Origin: Anatilimnocola floriformis
GTDB lineage: Bacteria; Planctomycetota; Planctomycetia; Pirellulales; Pirellulaceae
NCBI RefSeq assembly: GCF_024256385.1
Contig: NZ_JAMLFW010000001.1
Coordinates: 1,860,001-1,924,000, forward strand
Direction: 5' to 3'
Length of the DNA: 64,000 nucleotides
How positions within the stretch are numbered: position 1 is the first letter of the stretch; each line of letters begins with the position of its first letter. Shown piece by piece: positions 54,643 through 63,591 of this stretch. The notes beneath the pieces are model-generated. The model had not been told where the DNA came from, made no database searches, and saw only the letters and a list, made by a program, of their open reading frames with translations. Made by a program: the position numbers and the translations under genes.

Positions 54643-54718
54643 ATGCGGGCCACCGTAAGGCATGGCTGTCTTACATCTAATTTGGGACCCTGCAAAAACC
54701 TCTCTCCTGGTGCCCTCT

Positions 54719-57520
54719 ATGACTTCGTCGCCTCGTTGGAAGAAATTGCTCGCACAACTCGGCCTTGTTCGCTCGAAGAATAACCGCCCCCAGCGCAATC
54801 TGCGACTAGAGAGCTTGGAACAACGCACCGTTCTTGATGGCGACCCTAATACCTTCTCGATTTCTGGCCTCGCTGCCGATGAGCCGGCACTGCCAGGCGA
54901 GGCGACCCAGCTCTCGTTCAATATCACCTTCACCGACGCCAACAACACTGGCGGATCGGTGAAGTGGCGCGTGCAGCAGGTCGGCGCAACCGGCGAGGCG
55001 ACGGAAAATCAAGACTTCACATCTGCTCAAGGCACGTTGAGCTTCGGTTCCGGCGGTGGCACTACGCAGGTGCAGGTGCCGGTACTGTTCGACGGGATCA
55101 ACGGTGAGGCAGATGAAGTTGTTCGCGTCGAACTGTACGACGCGGTGAACGGAAGCCTCTACTGCGACTACGTCGGCTTCGGCACGATTCATGACACCGT
55201 GTATGGTTCGAGCGGTGGTTCGTCCGGTGGATCGAGCGGTGGTTCGTCCGGTGGATCGTCCGGTGGATCGTCCGGTGGATCGAGCGGTGGATCGAGCGGT
55301 GGATCGAGCGGTGGATCGAGCGGTGGATCGAGCGGTGGATCGAGCGGTGGTTCGTCCGGTGGATCGTCCGGTGGATCGTCCGGTGGATCGTCCGGTGGAT
55401 CGTCCGGTGGATCGTCCGGTGGATCGAGCGGTGGTTCGTCCGGTGGTTCGTCCGGTGGATCGAGCGGTGGTTCGTCCGGTGGTTCGTCCGGTGGATCGAG
55501 CGGTGGTTCGTCCGGTGGTTCGTCCGGTGGTTCGAGCGGTGGTTCGAGCGGTGGTTCGAGCGGTGGTTCGAGCGGTGGTTCGAGCGGTGGTTCGTCCGGT
55601 GGATCGAGCGGTGGTTCGTCCGGTGGTTCGTCCGGTGGATCGTCCGGTGGATCGAGCGGTGGATCGAGCGGTGGATCGAGCGGTGGATCGAGCGGTGGTT
55701 CGTCTGCCGCAAGTTCGATCGCGGGATCAGTCACCGTCGATGGAAATGCGACTTCGAGTGCCGCGAAGGGAATGTTCACTCCCTCAGGTGCCACTATGGA
55801 GCGGGAAACGACGGATGTGGAACTCCTGTACGTTAAACACTACTTAAAGCAATACGACGGACCCACGCAGTTCAAATCGGATTACACGGTCAATCTCAAA
55901 GCTGATGGCTCGTTCGATCCAACCGGCAGCACGATTAAGTTGACCACCGTGAACTACACTTCACGCACATACGTGACAAGGAATGACGCAGACATTTCGG
56001 CGGAAGAGGAGGCCGCGCTGGTCGCGAAAGGCAAAACCGTTTACAGGGAAGGCGGCAATGCCTACATCTTCTCCAAGCCGAACTCCACGAACAGTGGATG
56101 GCAGACACTGACGATCCCGATAACGGCAGCCATTTTGGTGGAGGGTAAGCTCCAATCCTTTCAATTCAAAGGCGATAAGTGGTACGGTAACCCACCATCC
56201 GGCCTTATCGATAAGGGCATTGAGGGCGCCGTTGATTTAAAAATGGGCACAGCAAATTTTACGTCGAAATATCAAGATCCGATCAGAGGCGGGATCGCCA
56301 CGTTCGAGACGACAGGTACTATTAAATCGAGCGGTGGTTCGTCCGGTGGATCGAGCGGTGGTTCGTCCGGTGGATCGAGCGGTGGTTCGTCCGGTGGATC
56401 GAGCGGTGGTTCGTCCGGTGGATCGAGCGGTGGTTCGTCCGGTGGATCGAGCGGTGGTTCGTCCGGTGGTTCGTCCGGTGGATCGTCCGGTGGTTCGTCC
56501 GGTGGATCGAGCGGTGGTTCGTCCGGTGGATCGAGCGGTGGTTCGTCCGGTGGTTCGTCCGGTGGTTCGTCCGGTGGATCGAGCGGTGGATCGAGCGGTG
56601 GATCGAGCGGTGGATCGAGCGGTGGATCGAGCGGTGGATCGAGCGGTGGATCGAGCGGTGGATCGAGCGGTGGATCGAGCGGTGGATCGAGCGGTGGATC
56701 GAGCGGTGGATCGTCCGGTGGTTCGTCCGGTGGTTCGTCCGGTGGTTCGTCCGGTGGATCGAGCGGTGGTTCGTCCGGTGGTTCGTCCGGTGGTTCGTCC
56801 GGTGGATCGAGCGGTGGTTCGTCCGGTGGATCGAGCGGTGGTTCGTCCGGTGGATCGAGCGGTGGTTCGTCCGGTGGATCGAGCGGTGGTTCGAGCGGTG
56901 GTTCGTCCGGTCCCTTTGCACTGGATAAGATTGAGGGCACGCTCACTCTTGACGGTAATTCCACTGCCAGTGCCGCTAAGAGCGCCCCGGGCACGACAGA
57001 TGAGCAACTTTGGATTGACACAGGTTACTATAAGCAATACGACGGGCCCACAAAGTTCACAGCCCAGTACACTGTCAATCTCAACGCTGACGGCACGTTC
57101 AAAGCAGCCGGCAGCACGATCACGTTCACCATGGTGAACTTCACTGATTGGAGTTATATAACAAGGCCAAGTGCATCCATTTCACAGGCTAAAGAGGATG
57201 AATATGTAGCGGCTGGTAAACGTGTTGTCAGAGTTGGCGAAAAATGCTTCATCTATTCCAATGAGAATCTCCTCACACAGCCAGCATTTAGTTCGGTGGC
57301 GATCCCGATTACCGAAGCCACTTTGATGGATGGCAAACTCGTTTCGTTCAAGTTTGTAGGCGACAAGTGGTATAAAGACCTGCCGGCCGGGTTTACCGAT
57401 AAAGGTATCGTCGGTGAAATTGATTTGACAAACTCCACGGGTAAATGGACAGCGAAATATCAACAGGATGCTAACGGCACGATTGCTATATACGACGTAA
57501 CAGCTACACTTGTGCATTAG
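54719..57520 (+). CDS. Surface-type protein with Calx-beta-like domain and two SGGS repeat tracts
   Basis: 933 residues from ATG 54719. The N-terminus is basic and ends in RNLRLESLEQRTVLDGD, a motif common on secreted planctomycete proteins. Residues about 45-160 resemble a Calx-beta domain (TQLSFNITFTDANNTGGSVK, GEADEVVRVELYDAVNGS). Repeat tract 1 (about 163-329, some 42 SGGS units) precedes domain A. Tract 2 (about 537-731, some 49 units) precedes domain B. A and B are paralogous (VTVDGNATSSAAKG/LTLDGNSTASAAKS, QYDGPTQFKSDYTVNL/QYDGPTKFTAQYTVNL, FKGDKWYGNPPSG/FVGDKWYKDLPAG). The Ser/Gly tracts look like flexible stalks and possible O-glycosylation targets. No membrane anchor is seen. Confidence 0.85.
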   Translation: MTSSPRWKKLLAQLGLVRSKNNRPQRNLRLESLEQRTVLDGDPNTFSISGLAADEPALPGEATQLSFNITFTDANNTGGSVKWRVQQVGATGEATENQDFTSAQGTLSFGSGGGTTQVQVPVLFDGINGEADEVVRVELYDAVNGSLYCDYVGFGTIHDTVYGSSGGSSGGSSGGSSGGSSGGSSGGSSGGSSGGSSGGSSGGSSGGSSGGSSGGSSGGSSGGSSGGSSGGSSGGSSGGSSGGSSGGSSGGSSGGSSGGSSGGSSGGSSGGSSGGSSGGSSGGSSGGSSGGSSGGSSGGSSGGSSGGSSGGSSGGSSGGSSGGSSGGSSAASSIAGSVTVDGNATSSAAKGMFTPSGATMERETTDVELLYVKHYLKQYDGPTQFKSDYTVNLKADGSFDPTGSTIKLTTVNYTSRTYVTRNDADISAEEEAALVAKGKTVYREGGNAYIFSKPNSTNSGWQTLTIPITAAILVEGKLQSFQFKGDKWYGNPPSGLIDKGIEGAVDLKMGTANFTSKYQDPIRGGIATFETTGTIKSSGGSSGGSSGGSSGGSSGGSSGGSSGGSSGGSSGGSSGGSSGGSSGGSSGGSSGGSSGGSSGGSSGGSSGGSSGGSSGGSSGGSSGGSSGGSSGGSSGGSSGGSSGGSSGGSSGGSSGGSSGGSSGGSSGGSSGGSSGGSSGGSSGGSSGGSSGGSSGGSSGGSSGGSSGGSSGGSSGGSSGGSSGGSSGGSSGPFALDKIEGTLTLDGNSTASAAKSAPGTTDEQLWIDTGYYKQYDGPTKFTAQYTVNLNADGTFKAAGSTITFTMVNFTDWSYITRPSASISQAKEDEYVAAGKRVVRVGEKCFIYSNENLLTQPAFSSVAIPITEATLMDGKLVSFKFVGDKWYKDLPAGFTDKGIVGEIDLTNSTGKWTAKYQQDANGTIAIYDVTATLVH
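55204..55706 (+). repeat. 12-bp tandem repeat tract 1 (SGGS codons)
   Basis: About 42 copies of a 12-base unit of the form TCG-(TCC or AGC)-GGT-GG(A or T). Only two positions vary: the second Ser codon (TCC or AGC) and the last Gly codon base. The variants cluster in runs, as expected from slippage and unequal exchange of higher-order blocks. The tract is in frame and length change by whole units would not break the gene. Confidence 0.97.
56327..56912 (+). repeat. 12-bp tandem repeat tract 2 (SGGS codons)
   Basis: About 49 copies of the same 12-base unit as tract 1, with a 24-base alternation (AGC/GGTGGT/TCG/TCC/GGTGGA) in the flanks and a run of at least ten identical AGC-type units in the centre. 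The two tracts are similar enough to recombine, which would delete domain A. Confidence 0.97.
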
Positions 57521-58264: not shown

Positions 58265-58500
58265 GCTTGGTGGGTTGGTCCCGTAACGCGGCCATTAGAG
58301 AGCAGGAACTGGACCACATCGGCGTTCTCGGGAAATGACCATTCGGCCGCGTTCGACGTCCCGAAGGTAGCTTCGACGCGAGCGATTAGGCCTCCCGCCT
58401 TTTTCTTGTCGTGGGTCTGGAAAGATCGCTTGAACCGCTTGTTGCCTAAGCGGATGCAAATGAAATACACGCCACAGGCGTCCAACTCGTGCCAGGCCAT
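58265..58500 (-). pseudogene. Tyrosine recombinase fragment, N-terminal arm domain
   Basis: From ATG 58500, with CGGAG about 7 bases upstream, the frame reads like the N-terminus of a planctomycete site-specific integrase (YFICIRLGNKRFKRSFQTHD, KKKAGGLIARVEATFGT, ENADVVQFLLSNGRVTG). After about 58265 the text is Arg/Pro-rich and unrelated; the open frame ends at 58171. It keeps a native-looking start and lies 162 bases past a tRNA-Leu 3' half on the same strand, the usual layout of an integrated element. Confidence 0.7.
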
Positions 58501-58661
58501 CGCCGAATCTCCGTTGCAAAATCTACGGAGGAACCGGCCTGAAACCTATCGACGCAATGCACAACGAAACCCCCGCTGCCACGGTTTTGCCACGGGTGTT
58601 ACCGAGTCGGCCGCAGGGGGCCTGTCACCCGGAATGTGCAAAAATGCCTCAAAATAAGAAG

Positions 58662-58711
58662 TACCAGAGGCCGGACTTGAACCGGCACGCCCTTGCGGGC
58701 ACAGGGTTTTG
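58662..58711 (-). tRNA. 3' half of tRNA-Leu (CAA), partial; probable attachment site
   Basis: On the minus strand the sequence runs from the anticodon loop TTCAAAA through CCCTG, a long variable arm (TGCCCGCAAGGGCG), a perfect T arm (GCCGG TTCAAGT CCGGC) and the acceptor strand CTCTGGT-A. The long variable arm and TTCAAAA loop point to tRNA-Leu(CAA). The 5' acceptor strand (ACCAGAG) and the 5' anticodon stem (CAGGG) are missing: CAGAT stands where CAGGG should be. A D-arm-like TGGCGAATCGGCTTGGCAGA lies just upstream but does not rescue the fold. Integrases often recombine in a tRNA between the anticodon loop and the 3' end, which is exactly the part kept. Confidence 0.7.
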
Positions 58712-58773
58712 AAATCTGCCAAGCCGATTCGCCACAATTTTTGCCACCCACGCAATACTTCACCTCGCAACTG

Positions 58774-59559
58774 CTAAACGTGAATAGACTGCCAAATCAT
58801 AAAGATGACCACGAATAGCGTAAATGCGAGCACGAAGAATAACAAAAGTCGTACGAAACGCTTTGTAGGTTGAGTGAGTTTGAGCAGTCTCAATCTGTCC
58901 TGTCGAATAACATCACTTTCCTGTTGCTGCCTGCGGTAATCTACTGCGAATTGAGAATTGCTATTGCCTGAAACATCAATTTGAAGGGGTTGGCTGCCTG
59001 TGGTTCGCAAACGAATTCTCACTGACTTCGTGTACTGGATCGTACCCAGCGCCGAACAACGGGGTGAGGTTGCTTTACACGCACCAATTAGGGATTGGCC
59101 AGTGTTCTCGAACAAGTGTTCCGAGTCCGGCCGCTGCGCGCGGTGCGGTTGCGGCGTATGTATTTCTAGTACCGTCGCAGGCACCGGACATTGCTGCAAA
59201 GCAACGGAGGCGAGATTCATCGTGATGTCGCCCCAATAAAACTCCGTCGGATCGACCAACTCCGTTTCACTACTTTTCACAAAACCGCAGACGACGACGT
59301 ATCTGCCGGGTCTGCCTTGTGGATCGCGTCCTCCGTTTAAGAAGCGATAGTAACATCGCCAGTCCTTAGAAAGGTCGTAGATGCCACCCCACAACGTTGT
59401 CGCTTCGAGTTCGTTTGGATGCTGCGGAATGTCAGCCGCTAAGCCTTCGTAGTACGTTTCAACAAGCTGCTCACGCGCAAGTTGCGGGTGATACCATGTC
59501 CAATAATTGCCATCGGCAGTTTGGAAAGCAGGATCGTAAAGCGCAAGTAGGATCTTCAT
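58774..59559 (-). CDS. Tail-anchored protein of unknown function in the GTPase operon
   Basis: 261 residues. A globular N-terminal part (LLALYDPAFQTADGNYWTWY, ATTLWGGIYDLSKDWRCYYR, GRPGRYVVVCGFVKSSE) ends at about 195. A charged segment follows (RLRLLKLTQPTKR), then a C-terminal membrane helix (LLLFFVLAFTLFVVIFMIW) with only four residues after it. It is therefore probably tail-anchored with the bulk in the cytosol. The N-terminal half has the look of proteins paired with GTPases in predicted bacterial conflict systems (GAP1-N-like), but I cannot confirm membership. It is the last gene of the operon, 18 bases after the small GTPase. Confidence 0.75.
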   Translation of the reverse strand: MKILLALYDPAFQTADGNYWTWYHPQLAREQLVETYYEGLAADIPQHPNELEATTLWGGIYDLSKDWRCYYRFLNGGRDPQGRPGRYVVVCGFVKSSETELVDPTEFYWGDITMNLASVALQQCPVPATVLEIHTPQPHRAQRPDSEHLFENTGQSLIGACKATSPRCSALGTIQYTKSVRIRLRTTGSQPLQIDVSGNSNSQFAVDYRRQQQESDVIRQDRLRLLKLTQPTKRFVRLLLFFVLAFTLFVVIFMIWQSIHV

Positions 59560-59577
59560 GGGTCTTGGCCAGGGTCG

Positions 59578-60591
59578 CTACTTTTGTCGTGGATGCTCGA
59601 GAAACTGTTGAACCGCACGCGGACTATCCGTGTTTTGACGGCACCCTCGAAGGCAAAGCACAAGAAAAAGCCCGCCCCAGAAAGCCCACTTCAGTAGAGT
59701 CGCTCCTTCCTTTCGCGCCCAAGTAAGAAACCTCGTCCAATCTTCTTCGACTTCGTTTGAGACTGGCGGCGAAATGTCTGCGTTCAATCGTTCGATCGGC
59801 AACGATTTTTCAGCCAAATGCGTTGCTTGCCTTGCTGCACAAACTGCCATCCAATTCACGAACTCCGAAAACCCCTTACATCGCAGTTGGCCATCCGGAA
59901 CGCGCCTCGGCCTCCCAAGTTCGTCGGGCTTCGTAATCGTTGCTCCCACCGCTGAGATTCGAAAGATGGGAACCGCGTCGTCTTGCAAATACCGACCGGC
60001 AACATGGGGTAGATACTTCTGCGCCACCAGTTGGAGACTCGCTTCCTGTCGCAGTTCATCGCGATACAGGTCAGCCTGGGTGAAGACTATGCACATCGGA
60101 CGTGCCGGACACGTTGCATGGCGATAGTCCATGGCCCCGCGTAATAGCCATTCATTTTTCAACCGCTTAACTGCATCTTGCTCACCAATAAAGTCACGCA
60201 AATTGACAAGGAATGCGACTGCATCTGCAGTACGAACAATCTCAGCCAACGCTTGCAAGCGAGTGGGAAGATTTTCATCCGAAACCTGCTCTTCGGCAAA
60301 CAGTAAACGCAGGTCCTGCCCGGCCGAATCCACCAGTCGCAGCGTCCCCGTCTCACCGTATTCAATCTCAAAAAACCATTCCAGCTGCTGCCAGTTGCCC
60401 GGCGGTGTCGATGGTGGCCACTCGGATTGCTTGAGCGTTTGCCACGCTCGTTCCACGTATTCCGCTGTCGTTATATTCTGCGGGTGAAGGCGCATGAGGT
60501 GCTCTGAATTCGGACCGTAGAGTTTGCAAAGGACCGTCAGCAGTACGGTCTTGCCACATCCTTCGGTTCCGACGAACGCAATTCCAGTCAT
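59578..60591 (-). CDS. P-loop (TRAFAC-type) GTPase with C-terminal membrane helix
   Basis: 337 residues. Walker A: IAFVGTEGCGKTVLLTVL at the very N-terminus. DxxG is in LRLVDSAGQDLRLLF; the NKxD-like position reads CIVFTQADLY, so Asn-Lys is replaced by Thr-Gln. The text AVAFLVNLRDFIGEQDAVK matches small regulatory GTPases that sit beside adaptors in conflict operons. A hydrophobic helix (LKWAFWGGLFLVLCL) near residue 300 anchors the end. It starts four bases after the dynamin-like GTPase 2 stop, so the two are co-translated. It probably acts as switch or effector for the membrane GTPases (inference). Confidence 0.85.
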   Translation of the reverse strand: MTGIAFVGTEGCGKTVLLTVLCKLYGPNSEHLMRLHPQNITTAEYVERAWQTLKQSEWPPSTPPGNWQQLEWFFEIEYGETGTLRLVDSAGQDLRLLFAEEQVSDENLPTRLQALAEIVRTADAVAFLVNLRDFIGEQDAVKRLKNEWLLRGAMDYRHATCPARPMCIVFTQADLYRDELRQEASLQLVAQKYLPHVAGRYLQDDAVPIFRISAVGATITKPDELGRPRRVPDGQLRCKGFSEFVNWMAVCAARQATHLAEKSLPIERLNADISPPVSNEVEEDWTRFLTWARKEGATLLKWAFWGGLFLVLCLRGCRQNTDSPRAVQQFLEHPRQK

Positions 60592-60595
60592 GGTC

Positions 60596-61657
60596 CTAGT
60601 TTCTTCCCGAAAGCGTGTCAGAGATTTGCTGTCCCGCTGGGCTCCGCTGCGAAATCAGTTTCCATCGCGACCAAGTATCGGGCCGCCACGGCGCCAGCTC
60701 TCGCGGTGCAGTGGAATGGATGTATTCCTGATGCCAGGTGCGCCAGTGATCAGCAAGTTGCTGAACCTGCCTACTCAGAGCCGCCGCGCGCAACTGTGGG
60801 TTCGCCAGTTCTGTTATCCGCTGCTGAAGCAAACCAATGCCGGTCGCTTCTAAATGCGACGGAGCAGCCGTTCTGCTTGCCGGCAGCAGCGGGGCAACAA
60901 ACCGGAACTGAGGCGTGTGGCCCTTAAATTCGCCCTGAAAACGCCGACAGAAACGTTCCTTGTCTGTCGGCGACCATTCTTCCCCGAGCGTGACGATGAT
61001 GTCGTCGCAAAGTTCTGGAAAAAATCTCTCGCGAAACTCTACTTCGCGTTTGCCAATACCCTGTTCGCCCAAGACCACCCAAAACACTTGTGAAACTTGC
61101 TCCTGCAGATACACCCGAACAGCCGCTTCATGAGAACCAGGATTCGCATCGAGCTGCGCCGCTCCAAAGCCAGGTGTATCTGCCAGAATCAGGCCCTGCT
61201 GAAGGAGCGGATGCGGAATATGCACAGAGAGTTTTGGTTGCCGCGCGGCGGCGTTCACCGACCATCTCGCTAATATTTCATGCAACTGCCTGGCATCAGA
61301 CCAGGCTACGAACTGCTGCTCGACCGAGTTGCCTTCCCGCAACGATACAAATCGCTGATCGCCGTAGCAGAACTCAATTGGCAGCGCCGTGCAGGGTCCA
61401 TTGCGGCGTGGAGACAGGTCTTCGCCTAATAACGCGTTCAGCAATGTTGATTTACCGACGTTGGTCAGTCCCACGACGGCAATTGCATAGCGCCGCCTCG
61501 CTTGCGTCACACGTTTGCAATGCTTGAGGACGGAAATTGAAACGCGATACAGCGCTTCGCGCAATGTAGGTTCTCGCTGGTACTCAGCAGACTCGCTAAA
61601 AAGCAAGTAAAGTTCGTCCAGCAAAATTGGTAATTCGTGCGTGTCGACCTGCGACAT
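60596..61657 (-). CDS. Dynamin/Era-like GTPase 2
   Basis: 353 residues from ATG 61657; a TTG five codons upstream is an alternative. G1: IAVVGLTNVGKSTLLNALLG near residue 65. Switch region: RRNGPCTALPIEFCYG, with the conserved Thr. G3: LILADTPGFGAAQ. The G4 NKxD is not clear; VTLGEEW stands near the expected place. The layout (helical N-terminus, GTPase, helical C-terminus of about 100 residues) is that of short dynamin-family proteins without a membrane paddle. It follows dynamin-like GTPase 1 by 18 bases. In bacteria such pairs, for example LeoA/B or DynA-type, remodel membranes. Confidence 0.85.
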   Translation of the reverse strand: MSQVDTHELPILLDELYLLFSESAEYQREPTLREALYRVSISVLKHCKRVTQARRRYAIAVVGLTNVGKSTLLNALLGEDLSPRRNGPCTALPIEFCYGDQRFVSLREGNSVEQQFVAWSDARQLHEILARWSVNAAARQPKLSVHIPHPLLQQGLILADTPGFGAAQLDANPGSHEAAVRVYLQEQVSQVFWVVLGEQGIGKREVEFRERFFPELCDDIIVTLGEEWSPTDKERFCRRFQGEFKGHTPQFRFVAPLLPASRTAAPSHLEATGIGLLQQRITELANPQLRAAALSRQVQQLADHWRTWHQEYIHSTAPRELAPWRPDTWSRWKLISQRSPAGQQISDTLSGRN

Positions 61658-61675
61658 GATGTTTGCTCGCAAGGT

Positions 61676-62719
61676 TTAGGCTTTGGAAACTGGAACGGAT
61701 GCCACTAGTTCAGCAAGCGATTGAGAGGATGCCTGCAATCGTTGCGGCCCCGCTTCATCGGGGCGCTGCGCGAGCAATTCCTGGATCGTACGTTCGAGTT
61801 CATCCAGCTGAGAATCGATACGGGCGCGAAATTCACTCAGGATGTCGTCTCCCATGTCTCGCAACTGACTGATCCGTTGTTTCCGAAGCCGTTCAAATAT
61901 CTTGCCGATCTGAACTTGCCCTGCTTCGTCAAGCTTCTGCCTCGTTTTGAGCTTTGAAGTGCGCCAAGCGAAAGGTACTGCGGCAACGCCCAGACCAATC
62001 AAGGTCCAGCCGACTGGCCCCGACATTGCGACCCACAACGGAGTAGTCGTCAGGGCGACTGGAGCTGACACGGTGGCTGTCCCGGTTCCCAAAAATGAAA
62101 ATATGCCTGCAGCGTTTGGAAGCAGCACACTTCCCAATGTGCTGATCAACGAGGGCGCTGCAACTGTCGTGGTGGCGGCCGCTATTGCCGCCGCGTTCGC
62201 CGTAGCAATACTCGCAGCCGCTGCCTGACCAGCGATCATTAAGCCACTTCCAAGTGCGAGAGACGCCACGCCTCCCGCAACCTCCCTGATCGGCTGGTCA
62301 TCCGGCAGGTGCGGCGTATGCATTCCTAAGAAACCCAGCTCGAGACGCGGATACTCTTGTTGCAGATTTTCAGCAAGTGTTTGAAGGGAAGTCTCTAGTC
62401 GGTTCGTCGCCGGCCGCATGTCTTCTTCTATACGCCTCTGAATCAGAGTGGGCAGTTCCTTGGAGAGTTCATCGACAGTAAAAAGATCGGTGTCCGCAAT
62501 TTGCCGAGCGATTGCGGTTCTGCAACGGCTCTCAATCTCATCCAGCTCACGTTCGAATTCGTTCAAGGCTCGGCGCCACAGACGTTGGAAATTTTCTTCC
62601 GTAGGTTTTCGCGACAGCGCAAGCCGCGGCCGCTCTTGTTCCAGTTCTTTCAGATCGGCGGCCAGTTCCGCTGCCGACTTGCGTGAGCCGGAATTGCAAC
62701 TTCCAAAGACTGAGCCCAC
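61676..62719 (-). CDS. C-terminal (stalk and membrane) part of dynamin-like GTPase 1, frame-shifted
   Basis: A 347-residue open frame beginning with GTG inside the previous one. From about SAAELAADLKELEQERPRL the text continues the dynamin-like protein: long charged helices (ALNEFERELDEIESRCRTAI, LIQRRIEEDMRPATNRLETS), then two hydrophobic segments (VASLALGSGLMIAGQAAAAS and PVGWTLIGLGVAAVPFAW), then more coiled coil (IDSQLDELERTIQELLAQRP). This is the stalk and membrane-contact half of bacterial dynamins. A -1 shift near 62680-62690 would join it to the GTPase half to give about 640 residues. Separate translation from the GTG is possible but would leave each half incomplete. Confidence 0.75.
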   Translation of the reverse strand: MGSVFGSCNSGSRKSAAELAADLKELEQERPRLALSRKPTEENFQRLWRRALNEFERELDEIESRCRTAIARQIADTDLFTVDELSKELPTLIQRRIEEDMRPATNRLETSLQTLAENLQQEYPRLELGFLGMHTPHLPDDQPIREVAGGVASLALGSGLMIAGQAAAASIATANAAAIAAATTTVAAPSLISTLGSVLLPNAAGIFSFLGTGTATVSAPVALTTTPLWVAMSGPVGWTLIGLGVAAVPFAWRTSKLKTRQKLDEAGQVQIGKIFERLRKQRISQLRDMGDDILSEFRARIDSQLDELERTIQELLAQRPDEAGPQRLQASSQSLAELVASVPVSKA

Positions 62720-63591
62720 GGCTGAACCGCTTGCAAAACGCGACTACGGAAACGCTCAGCGAGTAACTCTCCCTTGTGCTGAGTGAGAAAGCTTCGCAAA
62801 TCCGCTGTCAGGGTTTCAAGTTGACTCCCTGCATAGTCTCCCGCGAACGCCAGTTTGGCGCTAATCGTGTAGATCTTCGGGACAGAAATGTCCAATTGGG
62901 CAAGAACCGCGCGGTTGTGCGGAATAGCGTCCCGTACATCAGTTTGCGAAGACTCATCGACTCGGTTCATTGCGAAGAAGATTTTTTGAACATCGGCCTC
63001 TTTTAATTTGCGGAGCAGGACGAGTTCGTCTTGATCGAGCGGCATTCGCGCAGTGACGAGAAAGATCACGGCATCGGCTTGCGGAGTGAAATGGTGGATC
63101 AGGGCGTCGTGATGCTCATGCATGGAGCCTGCGCCAGGAGTGTCAATCAATTCCACAGCGCGATCGAGTTGCGGAAACGGTCCGGCAATTTCAACGAGGG
63201 CGACTTCTTTGGCATTCTCAGGATTGTTTTCTTCGGTGACGTAACTGCGCACGTCACCATACGGAACGGTTGCGAAGTGCCCATCGCGAAAATGAACTTT
63301 CACGCACTCTTGCGATTCGTAGCGGAAGCTGCTGATCGCGCTGGACGCGGGCAACTTGTCGATCGGAGCAAGTTCATCATCGCTGCGGCCGAGCAAGGCA
63401 TTGATGAGAGTGGACTTTCCTCGCTTGACCTTGCCTAAGACGGCGAGTCGGAAACGAGCAGATTCGAACTGTTCGATTGCCAGTTGAACTGCGGTCTCGC
63501 AAGCTGGCTGCTGGTGAGCGGTGGCAAGTTTGGCGATTCTCTGAGCCCACGAGATGAGGGAACGACGGTGCTCTTGATCAATGAGTTGCAT
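62650..63591 (-). CDS. N-terminal (GTPase) part of dynamin-like GTPase 1, frame-shifted
   Basis: From ATG 63591, with CGGAG 7 bases upstream; the frame is open 57 codons farther but without coding character. G1: LAVLGKVKRGKSTLINALLG near residue 50. Switch: DKLPASSAISSFRY. G3: LIDTPGAGSMHEH. G4: FAMNRVDES. These are clear dynamin-family marks (GKxxRGKS). The frame leaves the family text after VQPWAQSLEVAIPAHA and stops at 62650. In the alternate frame SAAELAADLKEL continues. One base seems missing: GCAAGTCGGCA where GCAAAGTCGGCA would stay in frame. It heads the four-gene operon. Confidence 0.8.
   Translation of the reverse strand: MQLIDQEHRRSLISWAQRIAKLATAHQQPACETAVQLAIEQFESARFRLAVLGKVKRGKSTLINALLGRSDDELAPIDKLPASSAISSFRYESQECVKVHFRDGHFATVPYGDVRSYVTEENNPENAKEVALVEIAGPFPQLDRAVELIDTPGAGSMHEHHDALIHHFTPQADAVIFLVTARMPLDQDELVLLRKLKEADVQKIFFAMNRVDESSQTDVRDAIPHNRAVLAQLDISVPKIYTISAKLAFAGDYAGSQLETLTADLRSFLTQHKGELLAERFRSRVLQAVQPWAQSLEVAIPAHASRQRNWPPI

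What the first reader, a model, noticed from the sequence alone, without database searches (positions are those of the whole stretch)
58774..63591. Four-gene membrane GTPase operon: two dynamin-like GTPases, a TRAFAC-type GTPase and a tail-anchored partner
Three different GTP-binding proteins and a tail-anchored protein are encoded in one tight operon (gaps of about 4 to 18 bases). Three products carry membrane segments. It lies next to an integration scar with a tRNA-Leu fragment and broken integrases. Bacterial dynamins in pairs remodel membranes, and GTPase-rich cassettes with adaptor-like proteins are typical of predicted conflict systems. I know no named system with exactly this order.
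Basis: partly seen in the sequence, partly recalled or inferred. Interest (0 to 1): 0.75.

Follow-up and report, generated by a model that had tools for sequence, protein, structure and literature searches.

The report
GTPase switch operon with bacterial dynamin
In a planctomycete bacterium, a four-gene operon pairs a membrane-remodelling dynamin with a membrane-anchored GTPase switch and a partner that resembles the proteins controlling membrane-traffic GTPases in our own cells; related bacteria couple the same switch to other modules, which suggests a plug-in stress or defence device, though no function has been tested.

Summary
The operon is real, but gene 1 (the dynamin) is broken into two overlapping reading frames. 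Five of five newly found planctomycete loci with enough sequence carry all four genes in the same order. The constant core is the last gene pair: a C-terminally anchored GTPase (P0002) related to the 'double-GTPases', then a tail-anchored protein (P0001). In 16 of 20 P0001-family loci a P0002-family gene lies directly upstream; three are contig-cut, one lacks it. Elsewhere a caspase or a TerD protein precedes the core. P0001 models with the same element order as GAP1-N2, the partner domain of double-GTPases; GAP1-N2 matches DENN/FLCN-type GTPase regulators, with modest TM-scores. P0003 is not an ordinary second dynamin: its flanks form a small adaptor, interrupted by a GTPase domain, that recurs uninterrupted at the end of the TerD proteins. 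Best reading: a membrane-anchored GTPase/longin-like switch controlling a dynamin through an adaptor, a new variant of the DO-GTPase/GAP1 conflict systems. Defining features of those systems are not met (Walker B glutamate, GAP1-M/C, FN3/GASH). Anti-phage function is untested.

The parts
62650..63591 (-). Gene 1, first reading frame (P0005, 313 aa): dynamin-type GTPase domain (GKVKRGKS, DTPG, NRVD)
   Evidence: Dynamin_N 4.5e-19, 69.5 bits, over cut-off; 46-55% identical to 6 relatives' dynamins
61676..62719 (-). Gene 1, second reading frame (P0004, 347 aa): helical part with Ala/Gly-rich, weakly hydrophobic paddle-like stretch
   Evidence: PADLOC LeoBC 5.9e-14, LeoA 1.5e-9; 6 relatives' dynamins continue into this frame at 29-37% identity
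62680..62700 (-). Place where the dynamin reading frame changes (frame +1 to +3 of the gene); no slippery heptamer seen by eye
   Evidence: tblastn of 6 relatives' dynamins; sequence read
60596..61657 (-). P0003 (353 aa): dynamin-like G domain inserted between the two halves of a small adaptor domain
   Evidence: Dynamin_N 2.4e-17; adaptor matches
61538..61624 (-). Adaptor, first half (P0003 residues 12-40, LLDELYLLFSESAEYQ...)
   Evidence: TerD-protein adaptor HMM hits P0003 at E 4.5e-7 for the whole protein; this half alone iE 0.41
60659..60772 (-). Adaptor, second half (P0003 residues 296-333, ...WRPDTWSRW)
   Evidence: iE 2.2e-4; both halves of 7 family members together against TerD adaptors, hhalign P 2.8e-17
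59578..60591 (-). P0002 (337 aa): DO-GTPase-related switch (GTEGCGKT, DSAGQD, TQAD) with C-terminal membrane anchor at residues 296-314
   Evidence: Pfam DO-GTPase1 1.7e-4, DO-GTPase2 1.1e-3, both below cut-off; 5 of 10 other members scanned singly over the DO-GTPase1 cut-off; motifs; anchor
58774..59559 (-). P0001 (261 aa): longin/GAP1-N-like domain (about residues 1-125) with invariant Arg83, helix, tail anchor at residues 238-256
   Evidence: AF2 model mean pLDDT 82; same element order as own-genome GAP1-N2; PDB hits, all E >= 0.03; the arginine in 21 of 21
58641..58713 (-). 3' fragment of tRNA-Leu(caa) plus about 20 bases beyond it: attachment-site remnant
   Evidence: 97% to the intact tRNA-Leu(caa) locus in the same genome
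58171..58500 (-). Remnant of an integrase 5' end (homology reaches to 58286)
   Evidence: 70% over window 58286-58713 to L094, which carries a 437-aa integrase beside tRNA-Leu; the remnant alone hits no family

Best explanation
The operon encodes a membrane-anchored GTPase switch coupled to a dynamin. P0002, a relative of the double-GTPases anchored at its C-terminus, and P0001, a tail-anchored longin/GAP1-N-like protein, form the constant core on the cytoplasmic face of the membrane. P0001 regulates P0002, most simply as a GTPase-activating partner that offers invariant Arg83 to the DxAGQD active site. P0003 is the coupler: an adaptor domain with a GTPase inserted in it, which ties the dynamin to the core. 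When the switch flips (phage entry, envelope damage), the dynamin is recruited or licensed to assemble on and remodel the membrane. In other loci the same core stands with a TerD protein bearing the same adaptor, or with a caspase. Shown: gene order and its conservation, the core/variable logic, the shared adaptor. Supported by models and weak profile matches: the longin/GAP1-N identity of P0001. Inferred only: Arg83 catalysis, the order of events, the trigger, a defence role. In this genome the dynamin gene is broken or mis-assembled, so this copy may not work.
For: Conservation: the P0003-family profile found 8 of 396 order genomes. G000 and G129 were in the profile, so 6 are new; 5 of these have enough contig and all 5 carry dynamin-P0003-P0002-P0001 in order on one strand (G790 with an extra P0002); the sixth (G719) is contig-cut. 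Core: 20 P0001-family loci in 15 of 119 genomes: 16 have a P0002-family gene directly upstream, 3 are contig-cut, 1 (G140) has none. Other modules: Peptidase_C14 in 3 loci, TerD in 3. Relation of P0002: 18 of 19 members match DO-GTPase2 and 15 of 19 DO-GTPase1 at E<=0.1; 5 of 10 scanned singly pass the DO-GTPase1 cut-off. P0001 fold: b1-b2-a1-b3-b4-b5-a2 at nearly the same residue numbers as own-genome GAP1-N2; the arginine of the b4-b5 loop is in 21 of 21 P0001-family and 20 of 20 GAP1-N2 domains; 9 of the 11 best PDB hits of P0001 are among the 16 best of GAP1-N2, which hits DENND1A at E 1.6e-4. Adaptor: TerD C-termini against P0003 flanks, hhalign P 2.8e-17, 0 of 60 shuffles as high.
Against: P0001 and 10 other family members scanned singly hit no GAP1 family in Pfam at E<=1 (0 of 11). 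hhalign against GAP1-N2 is weak (P 0.017 for all 20, 0 of 100 shuffles as high, but 3 and 10 of 100 for the two subsets). P0001's own PDB hits are all at E >= 0.03; the eleven best have TM-scores of 0.19-0.34; even GAP1-N2's DENND1 hits have TM 0.41-0.42 and rmsd near 10. The Walker B glutamate of DO-GTPases is glutamine in 19 of 19. G488 keeps P0003 and P0002 relatives without a dynamin, with no P0001 match in the 0.4 kb left on the contig, and its P0003 has lost the P-loop. PADLOC scans and plasmid/phage searches show no defence system of this make-up. The window's dynamin is split, and P0002 of this window sits on a long branch (2.24), as a decaying operon might.
Confidence: 0.55

Rival explanations
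1. A bacterial dynamin pair of the LeoA/LeoBC ('Eleos'/'Dynamins') kind, with P0002 and P0001 as accessory genes; the pair alone does the work at the membrane.
For: Two adjacent Dynamin_N proteins; PADLOC LeoA/LeoBC matches to window and relatives' dynamins; most bacterial dynamin genes are paired in operons (PMC6104087, passages).
Against: P0003 has no stalk or membrane part, a non-canonical G4 by eye and, in G488, no P-loop; its flanks are an adaptor shared with TerD proteins; P0002-P0001 stands without a dynamin in the examined stretches of 7 loci (3 caspase, 3 TerD, 1 double-P0002).
Confidence: 0.15
2. A housekeeping membrane-management system of planctomycetes (vesicle or endomembrane upkeep) controlled by a GTPase and a longin-like regulator, not a conflict system.
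For: Longin/DENN regulators and dynamins serve membrane traffic in eukaryotes (established knowledge); in G000, G129 and G545 some of the same neighbouring genes lie near the operon, though one of them, AAA-like by eye, has 11 matches in G001, so nearness may be chance.
Against: Rare and patchy: P0003 family in 8 of 396 order genomes, P0002 in 3 of 392 phylum genomes, P0003 and P0001 not found in the one same-genus genome; tRNA/integrase remnant next to it; exchange with caspase and TerD modules.
Confidence: 0.25
3. In this genome the operon is a decaying remnant; the conserved system exists elsewhere, but this copy is dead.
For: Frame change in the dynamin; integrase and tRNA remnants alongside; long branch of P0002.
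Against: P0003, P0002 and P0001 are open, with P-loops in both GTPases, tight spacing and anchors; one frame change in an assembly can be a sequencing error, which I could not check.
Confidence: 0.3

Closest known systems
DO-GTPase/GAP1 'GTPase-centric' conflict systems (Kaur et al. 2020, PMC7159879; passages and sections 28-29 read)
   Same: DO-GTPase-related GTPase with the partner gene downstream; membrane anchors; exchangeable modules including caspase
   Different: Glutamine for the Walker B glutamate; partner has only a GAP1-N/longin-like domain plus tail anchor, no M/C domains; no FN3 or GASH found; dynamin and the new adaptor ('dynamin' has 0 occurrences in that paper)
Bacterial dynamin pairs: LeoA/LeoBC (PMC4159319, start of abstract in a listing), C. 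jejuni DLP1/2 (PMC6104087, passages), 'Eleos'/'Dynamins' defence label (PMC11811056, passages)
   Same: Dynamin followed by a second dynamin-like GTPase; best solved match is Nostoc BDLP 2j68
   Different: Second GTPase is a G domain inside an adaptor; switch and longin-like partner in the same operon
DynA of Bacillus subtilis (PMC8844932, start of abstract in a listing)
   Same: Dynamin linked to membrane surveillance and phage tolerance
   Different: Fused double dynamin (PMC6104087, passage); no such switch genes are named in what I saw
Longin/DENN GTPase regulators: GATOR1 NPRL2, FLCN-FNIP, DENND1, C9orf72-SMCR8 (PMC8213707 and PMC3521125, passages)
   Same: Predicted fold of P0001/GAP1-N; regulators of small GTPases, several with a shown or proposed arginine finger
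   Different: Bacterial, tail-anchored, partner is a DO-GTPase relative; P0001 similarity rests on a model with E-values of 0.03 or more and low TM-scores

Membership tests
DO-GTPase/GAP1 conflict system | TRAFAC GTPase of the DO-GTPase family | tested here: met
   Family level: 5 of 10 members scanned singly over the DO-GTPase1 cut-off, 2 of 10 over DO-GTPase2; P0002 itself below both, 21.4 and 19.1 bits against 27
DO-GTPase/GAP1 conflict system | Conserved glutamate in Walker B | tested here: not met
   DxAGQD in 19 of 19; own-genome DO-GTPase2 reads DLAGEA at that place (aligned by eye)
DO-GTPase/GAP1 conflict system | GAP1 gene downstream of the GTPase, with GAP1-N domain | tested here: inconclusive
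   Position met; GAP1 families hit by 0 of 11 members scanned singly at E<=1; hhalign P 0.017; same order of structural elements in models
DO-GTPase/GAP1 conflict system | GAP1-M and GAP1-C domains | tested here: not met
   P0001 is one domain, a poorly ordered linker, helix and anchor; no such Pfam match in 11 members
DO-GTPase/GAP1 conflict system | FN3-repeat (N2) or GASH (N1) component | tested here: not met
   None in the five window ORFs at E<=1; neighbours in other loci only partly scanned
DO-GTPase/GAP1 conflict system | Variable effector or partner modules next to a constant core | tested here: met
   Dynamin+P0003, caspase and TerD types
Bacterial dynamin-like proteins (gene 1) | Dynamin G domain plus helical stalk | tested here: met
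   Dynamin_N over cut-off; profile of 6 relatives matches BDLP 2j68 over profile positions 33-367 of 645, E 1.6e-22; LeoA profile over P0004 residues 13-338; in the window split over two ORFs. The membrane-binding paddle was not tested separately
Bacterial dynamin-like proteins (P0003) | Helical stalk and membrane-binding part | tested here: not met
   353 aa, no hydrophobic segment; flanks are the adaptor
LeoA/LeoBC ('Eleos') defence system | Two full-length dynamins of the Leo families | tested here: not met
   Only gene 1 is full-length; P0003 matches LeoA at 8.9e-6 over 36 residues. The defining feature is recalled
Longin-domain GTPase regulators | Longin fold | tested here: inconclusive
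   P0001 model: right element order; 10 of the 11 best PDB hits are entries of GATOR1/SEAC, FLCN or DENND10 complexes (chain identity not given by the call), but none at E<=1e-3 and TM 0.19-0.34; GAP1-N2 model E 1.6e-4 to a DENND1A entry, TM 0.41
Longin-domain GTPase regulators | GAP or GEF activity on a cognate GTPase | not testable with these tools
   Needs biochemistry; invariant Arg83 is only a candidate

The most novel reading that the evidence does not exclude
Bacteria own a Rag-GATOR1/Rab-DENN-like control layer: the GAP1 proteins of DO-GTPase systems are longin(-DENN)-type regulators, and in this operon such a regulator, reduced to a tail-anchored longin domain with an arginine finger at Arg83, switches a membrane-anchored GTPase that deploys a dynamin through a plug-in adaptor domain shared with TerD and perhaps caspase modules.
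Probability: 0.36. Interest if true: 0.85.

Novelty: new variant of a known kind. Interest (0 to 1): 0.63.

Why it matters
It links three things studied apart: bacterial dynamins, the predicted double-GTPase conflict systems and longin/DENN regulators of eukaryotic membrane traffic. If right, it gives a two-protein, testable GTPase/regulator pair for systems whose biochemistry I found no report of, names an adaptor that plugs different modules into one switch, and offers a bacterial relative of the regulators that control Rab and Rag GTPases.

Tried and rejected
Led nowhere: the genome-contig scan with P0002 found only G488; viral contigs with P0003 gave none; plasmids gave only low-identity dynamins for P0003 (3 records) and nothing for P0002 or P0001; phages nothing for P0002; class of G488, 1 of 29 genomes, G488 itself. 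An 'empty site' in the same-genus genome G001 was not shown: in the 60 kb fetched around its best AAA-like homologue, DNA matches (over 150 bases) begin only at window coordinate 70802, and window 44000-54600 matches G001 only over its first 2.2 kb, at two other places.

Considered and rejected: programmed frameshifting in gene 1 (no slippery heptamer seen; 6 of 7 relatives are in one frame); P0001 as a MazE-like or Enterochelin_N protein (E >= 0.1); a SNARE relation of P0001's tail (VAMP2, E 0.22: not significant). The adaptor in caspase C-termini is only suggestive: P 0.058 with TerD adaptors alone (4 of 60 shuffles as high), P 0.0036 with the joint profile (0 of 60). One search stopped on a script error after printing its hmmsearch table; the rest was rerun. 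E-values are for a small set (ORFs of 23 loci, plus the five window proteins). Foldseek lists hold several entries of the same complexes, so hit counts are not independent. Rows dropped: L059 from the caspase C-terminus alignment (its ORF is shorter); L057 from the frame comparison and, for its missing C-terminus, from the joined flanks; 9 of the 19 P0002-family members were not among the ten (P0002 itself, one of the nine, was), and 10 of 21 P0001-family members were not scanned singly (one search scanned all 21 but shows 25 of 66 families).
Full report
What is there. The window lies in an 8.9-Mb genome (G000:C1:1860001-1924000). It is of the phylum Planctomycetota: G488, 'same phylum', carries the 9898-base contig that names a Planctomycetota MAG. 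On the minus strand between 63591 and 58774 five open frames make four genes. Gene 1 is split: P0005 (63591-62650) holds a dynamin GTPase domain, P0004 (62719-61676) the helical rest. Six of seven relatives carry both in one frame (L020, L052-L056); L057 is split too, at another place. The frame change lies at about 62680-62700, with no slippery heptamer seen by eye. I cannot tell a true lesion from an assembly error.

Genes 2 to 4 follow with gaps of 18, 4 and 18 bases. P0003 has a dynamin-type G domain at residues 59-208. P0002 has GTEGCGKT, DSAGQD and TQAD motifs, sub-threshold matches to DO-GTPase1/2 and a weak C-terminal hydrophobic segment. P0001 has no significant Pfam match and a hydrophobic tail at 238-256 of 261; 20 of 21 family members have such a segment. 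The operon's G+C is 54.2%; 4.8-kb stretches of the window average 57.4% (sd 1.6, lowest 53.8).

Surroundings. Directly downstream, 58641-58713 is the 3' part of tRNA-Leu(caa) plus about 20 further bases, 97% identical to the intact gene about 1.96 Mb away. Window 58286-58713 matches that locus, including the start of its integrase, at 70%. So an integration remnant sits next to the operon; that the operon arrived with it is an inference. Beyond the window end lie a coiled-coil/lipoprotein-like, a DUF1257-like (below its cut-off), an AAA-like and a clamp-like gene (labels other than DUF1257 by eye; no significant Pfam match). Some of them also occur near the operon in G129 and some in G545. The AAA-like gene has 11 matches in G001, so I draw nothing from this.

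Relatives. P0003 alone gave 4 of 147 relatives at E<=1e-10, one of them G000. A three-row profile gave 8 of 396 genomes of the order; G000 and G129 were in the profile, six are new. P0001 alone gave 2 of 147 including G000; a two-row profile gave 15 of 119 genomes of one family, with 20 loci (G140 was in the profile). P0002 gave 3 of 392 genomes of the phylum including G000. Gene maps show dynamin, P0003, P0002, P0001 in this order in G545, G806, G735, G701 and G790 (with two P0002 copies): 5 of 5 new P0003 loci with enough contig; G719 is contig-cut. G129 keeps dynamin and P0003 at a contig end. G488 is an exception: a P0003 relative without P-loop, then a P0002 relative whose frame looks broken, no dynamin match, and no P0001 match in the 0.4 kb before the contig ends.

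Core and plug-ins. Of the 20 P0001-family loci, 16 have a P0002-family gene directly upstream, 3 are contig-cut (L058, L070, L071) and 1 does not (L019, G140). Upstream of this pair lies dynamin+P0003 (5 loci: L052-L056), a Peptidase_C14 caspase (3: L059, L062, L064), a TerD protein (3: L066, L067, L068; L068 also has an AAA ATPase) or two large P0002 copies (1: L060); the other 8 are cut or unassigned. G701 carries a dynamin-type and a TerD-type locus. In a tree of 19 P0002-family rows with two DO-GTPase2 rows, the family is one side of a fully supported branch and the caspase type one group (100/100). The TerD rows group with three dynamin-type rows at 88/92, short of the tool's mark for firm support. 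The dynamin type needs three changes. The window's row is a long branch and its place unsure.

The adaptor. Profiles of the two flanks of P0003-family proteins hit the C-termini of the TerD proteins L066-L068: C-terminal half E 8e-10 to 8e-11, N-terminal half E 6e-4 to 0.012. The reverse search, with four C-termini (L069 being a fragment), hits the window's P0003 at E 4.5e-7 in two pieces, residues 12-40 (alone iE 0.41) and 296-333, and a short frame upstream of P0002 in L065 (2.8e-13). With the GTPase domain left out, the flanks of seven P0003-family proteins align with the TerD C-termini at hhalign P 2.8e-17, 0 of 60 column shuffles as high. Pfam shows no match to one such C-terminus at E<=5. 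So P0003 is an adaptor with a GTPase inserted in it. Caspase C-termini may carry a diverged copy (P 0.0036 with the joint profile, 0.058 with TerD alone).

The tail-anchored protein. AlphaFold2 on 21 family members gives mean pLDDT 82 (ten-residue means of 90 or more in 11 of the first 12 blocks) with elements b2-8, b20-23, a29-38, b56-62, b67-75, b87-95, a105-122. The GAP1-N2 protein of the same genome gives b4-11, b22-26, a32-41, b55-61, b66-77, b85-95, a96-115. GAP1-N2 itself is common here, in 23 of 40 relatives. In both, the loop between the last two strands carries a conserved motif (NGGRDPQGRPGR; AGAEYSGRAGGR) with an arginine in 21 of 21 and 20 of 20. Profile comparison is weak but aligns these motifs (P 0.017, 0 of 100 shuffles for all GAP1-N2; 3 and 10 of 100 for two subsets); the two GAP1-N2 subsets compare with each other at only P 0.002. 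None of 11 P0001-family members scanned singly hits a GAP1 family in Pfam. Foldseek finds no PDB match of P0001 at E<=1e-3; its first eleven are TagF and entries of GATOR1/SEAC, DENND10 and FLCN-FNIP complexes, E 0.03-0.93, TM-scores 0.19-0.34. Nine of these eleven are among the sixteen best of the GAP1-N2 model, which reaches E 1.6e-4 (TM 0.41, rmsd 9.6) with the DENND1A entry and 0.022 with a Lokiarchaeota longin domain. The element order is that of the longin fold (recalled). Kaur et al. do not mention longin (0 occurrences). In my literature searches for this link no title or abstract start that I saw states it; I read passages of PMC3521125 and PMC8213707 only. PMC3521125 derives eukaryotic longin domains from prokaryotic GTPase-binding Roadblock domains; PMC8213707 shows the SMCR8 arginine finger and discusses those proposed for NPRL2 and FLCN. 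I did not compare Arg83 with these residue by residue.

How it most likely works. Shown: order, conservation, different modules next to one core, shared adaptor, membrane anchors by hydropathy. Supported by models: P0001 as a longin/GAP1-N-like partner of P0002. Inferred: P0001 sets the nucleotide state of P0002 (Arg83 with the glutamine of DxAGQD, in place of the DO-GTPase glutamate); P0003 docks the dynamin to this core by its adaptor; the dynamin then acts on the membrane. A conflict or envelope-stress role follows from the relation to predicted conflict systems, patchy distribution, mobile remnant and the caspase loci; no experiment supports it.

Placement. It works like a DO-GTPase/GAP1 system, and the P0002 family is related to the DO-GTPases by profile, but tested defining features (Walker B glutamate, GAP1-M/C, FN3/GASH) are not met, so I call it a new variant rather than a member. 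An ordinary dynamin pair is also not met, because of P0003.

Noticed in passing
L085 (G000:C1:2995245 region), GAP1-N2 protein 1489-2262: The GAP1-N2 protein of the same genome models onto DENN-module GEF entries and an FLCN-FNIP2 entry (E 1.6e-4 to 7.6e-4, TM 0.27-0.42): GAP1 of the DO-GTPase systems may be a bacterial longin-DENN-type regulator.
   Followed up: partly
L066, L067, L068 (TerD proteins) and L069 1-420: An adaptor domain (...ESxxYH... WxxEYR ... FWRPDSWSRF) without Pfam match ends the TerD proteins and surrounds the G domain of P0003.
   Followed up: yes
L018 1879-11282 (G026): Four frames with matches to the dynamin GTPases P0003/P0005, two strong and two weak, lie in one stretch, with one further gene of unknown kind among them.
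   Followed up: no
window 70065-74470 (beyond the window, L022), L020, L052: Some of a set of neighbouring genes (coiled-coil/lipoprotein-like, DUF1257-like, AAA-like, clamp-like) recur near the operon in G129 and G545; the AAA-like one is multi-copy in G001.
   Followed up: partly
window 54662-57520: A 952-aa protein with two long runs of GGS-type repeats between similar domains.
   Followed up: no
G000:C1:3831974, 4602074 (L095, L096): Two more tRNA-Leu 3' fragments in the genome, one beside a 460-aa frame that looks integrase-like by eye: repeated integrations at this tRNA.
   Followed up: partly
L055 495-2525 (G701): A P0001-family frame of 676 aa continues after its membrane segment, presumably into the glycosidase-like domain that one member of A4 matches (Glyco_hydro_32N); a separate gene with a similar start, by eye, follows P0001 in L058.
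   Followed up: no
L015 7369-8499 (G488): A P0003 relative whose P-loop and G3 are lost while the adaptor motif WRPDSW is kept, as if only the adaptor mattered there.
   Followed up: no
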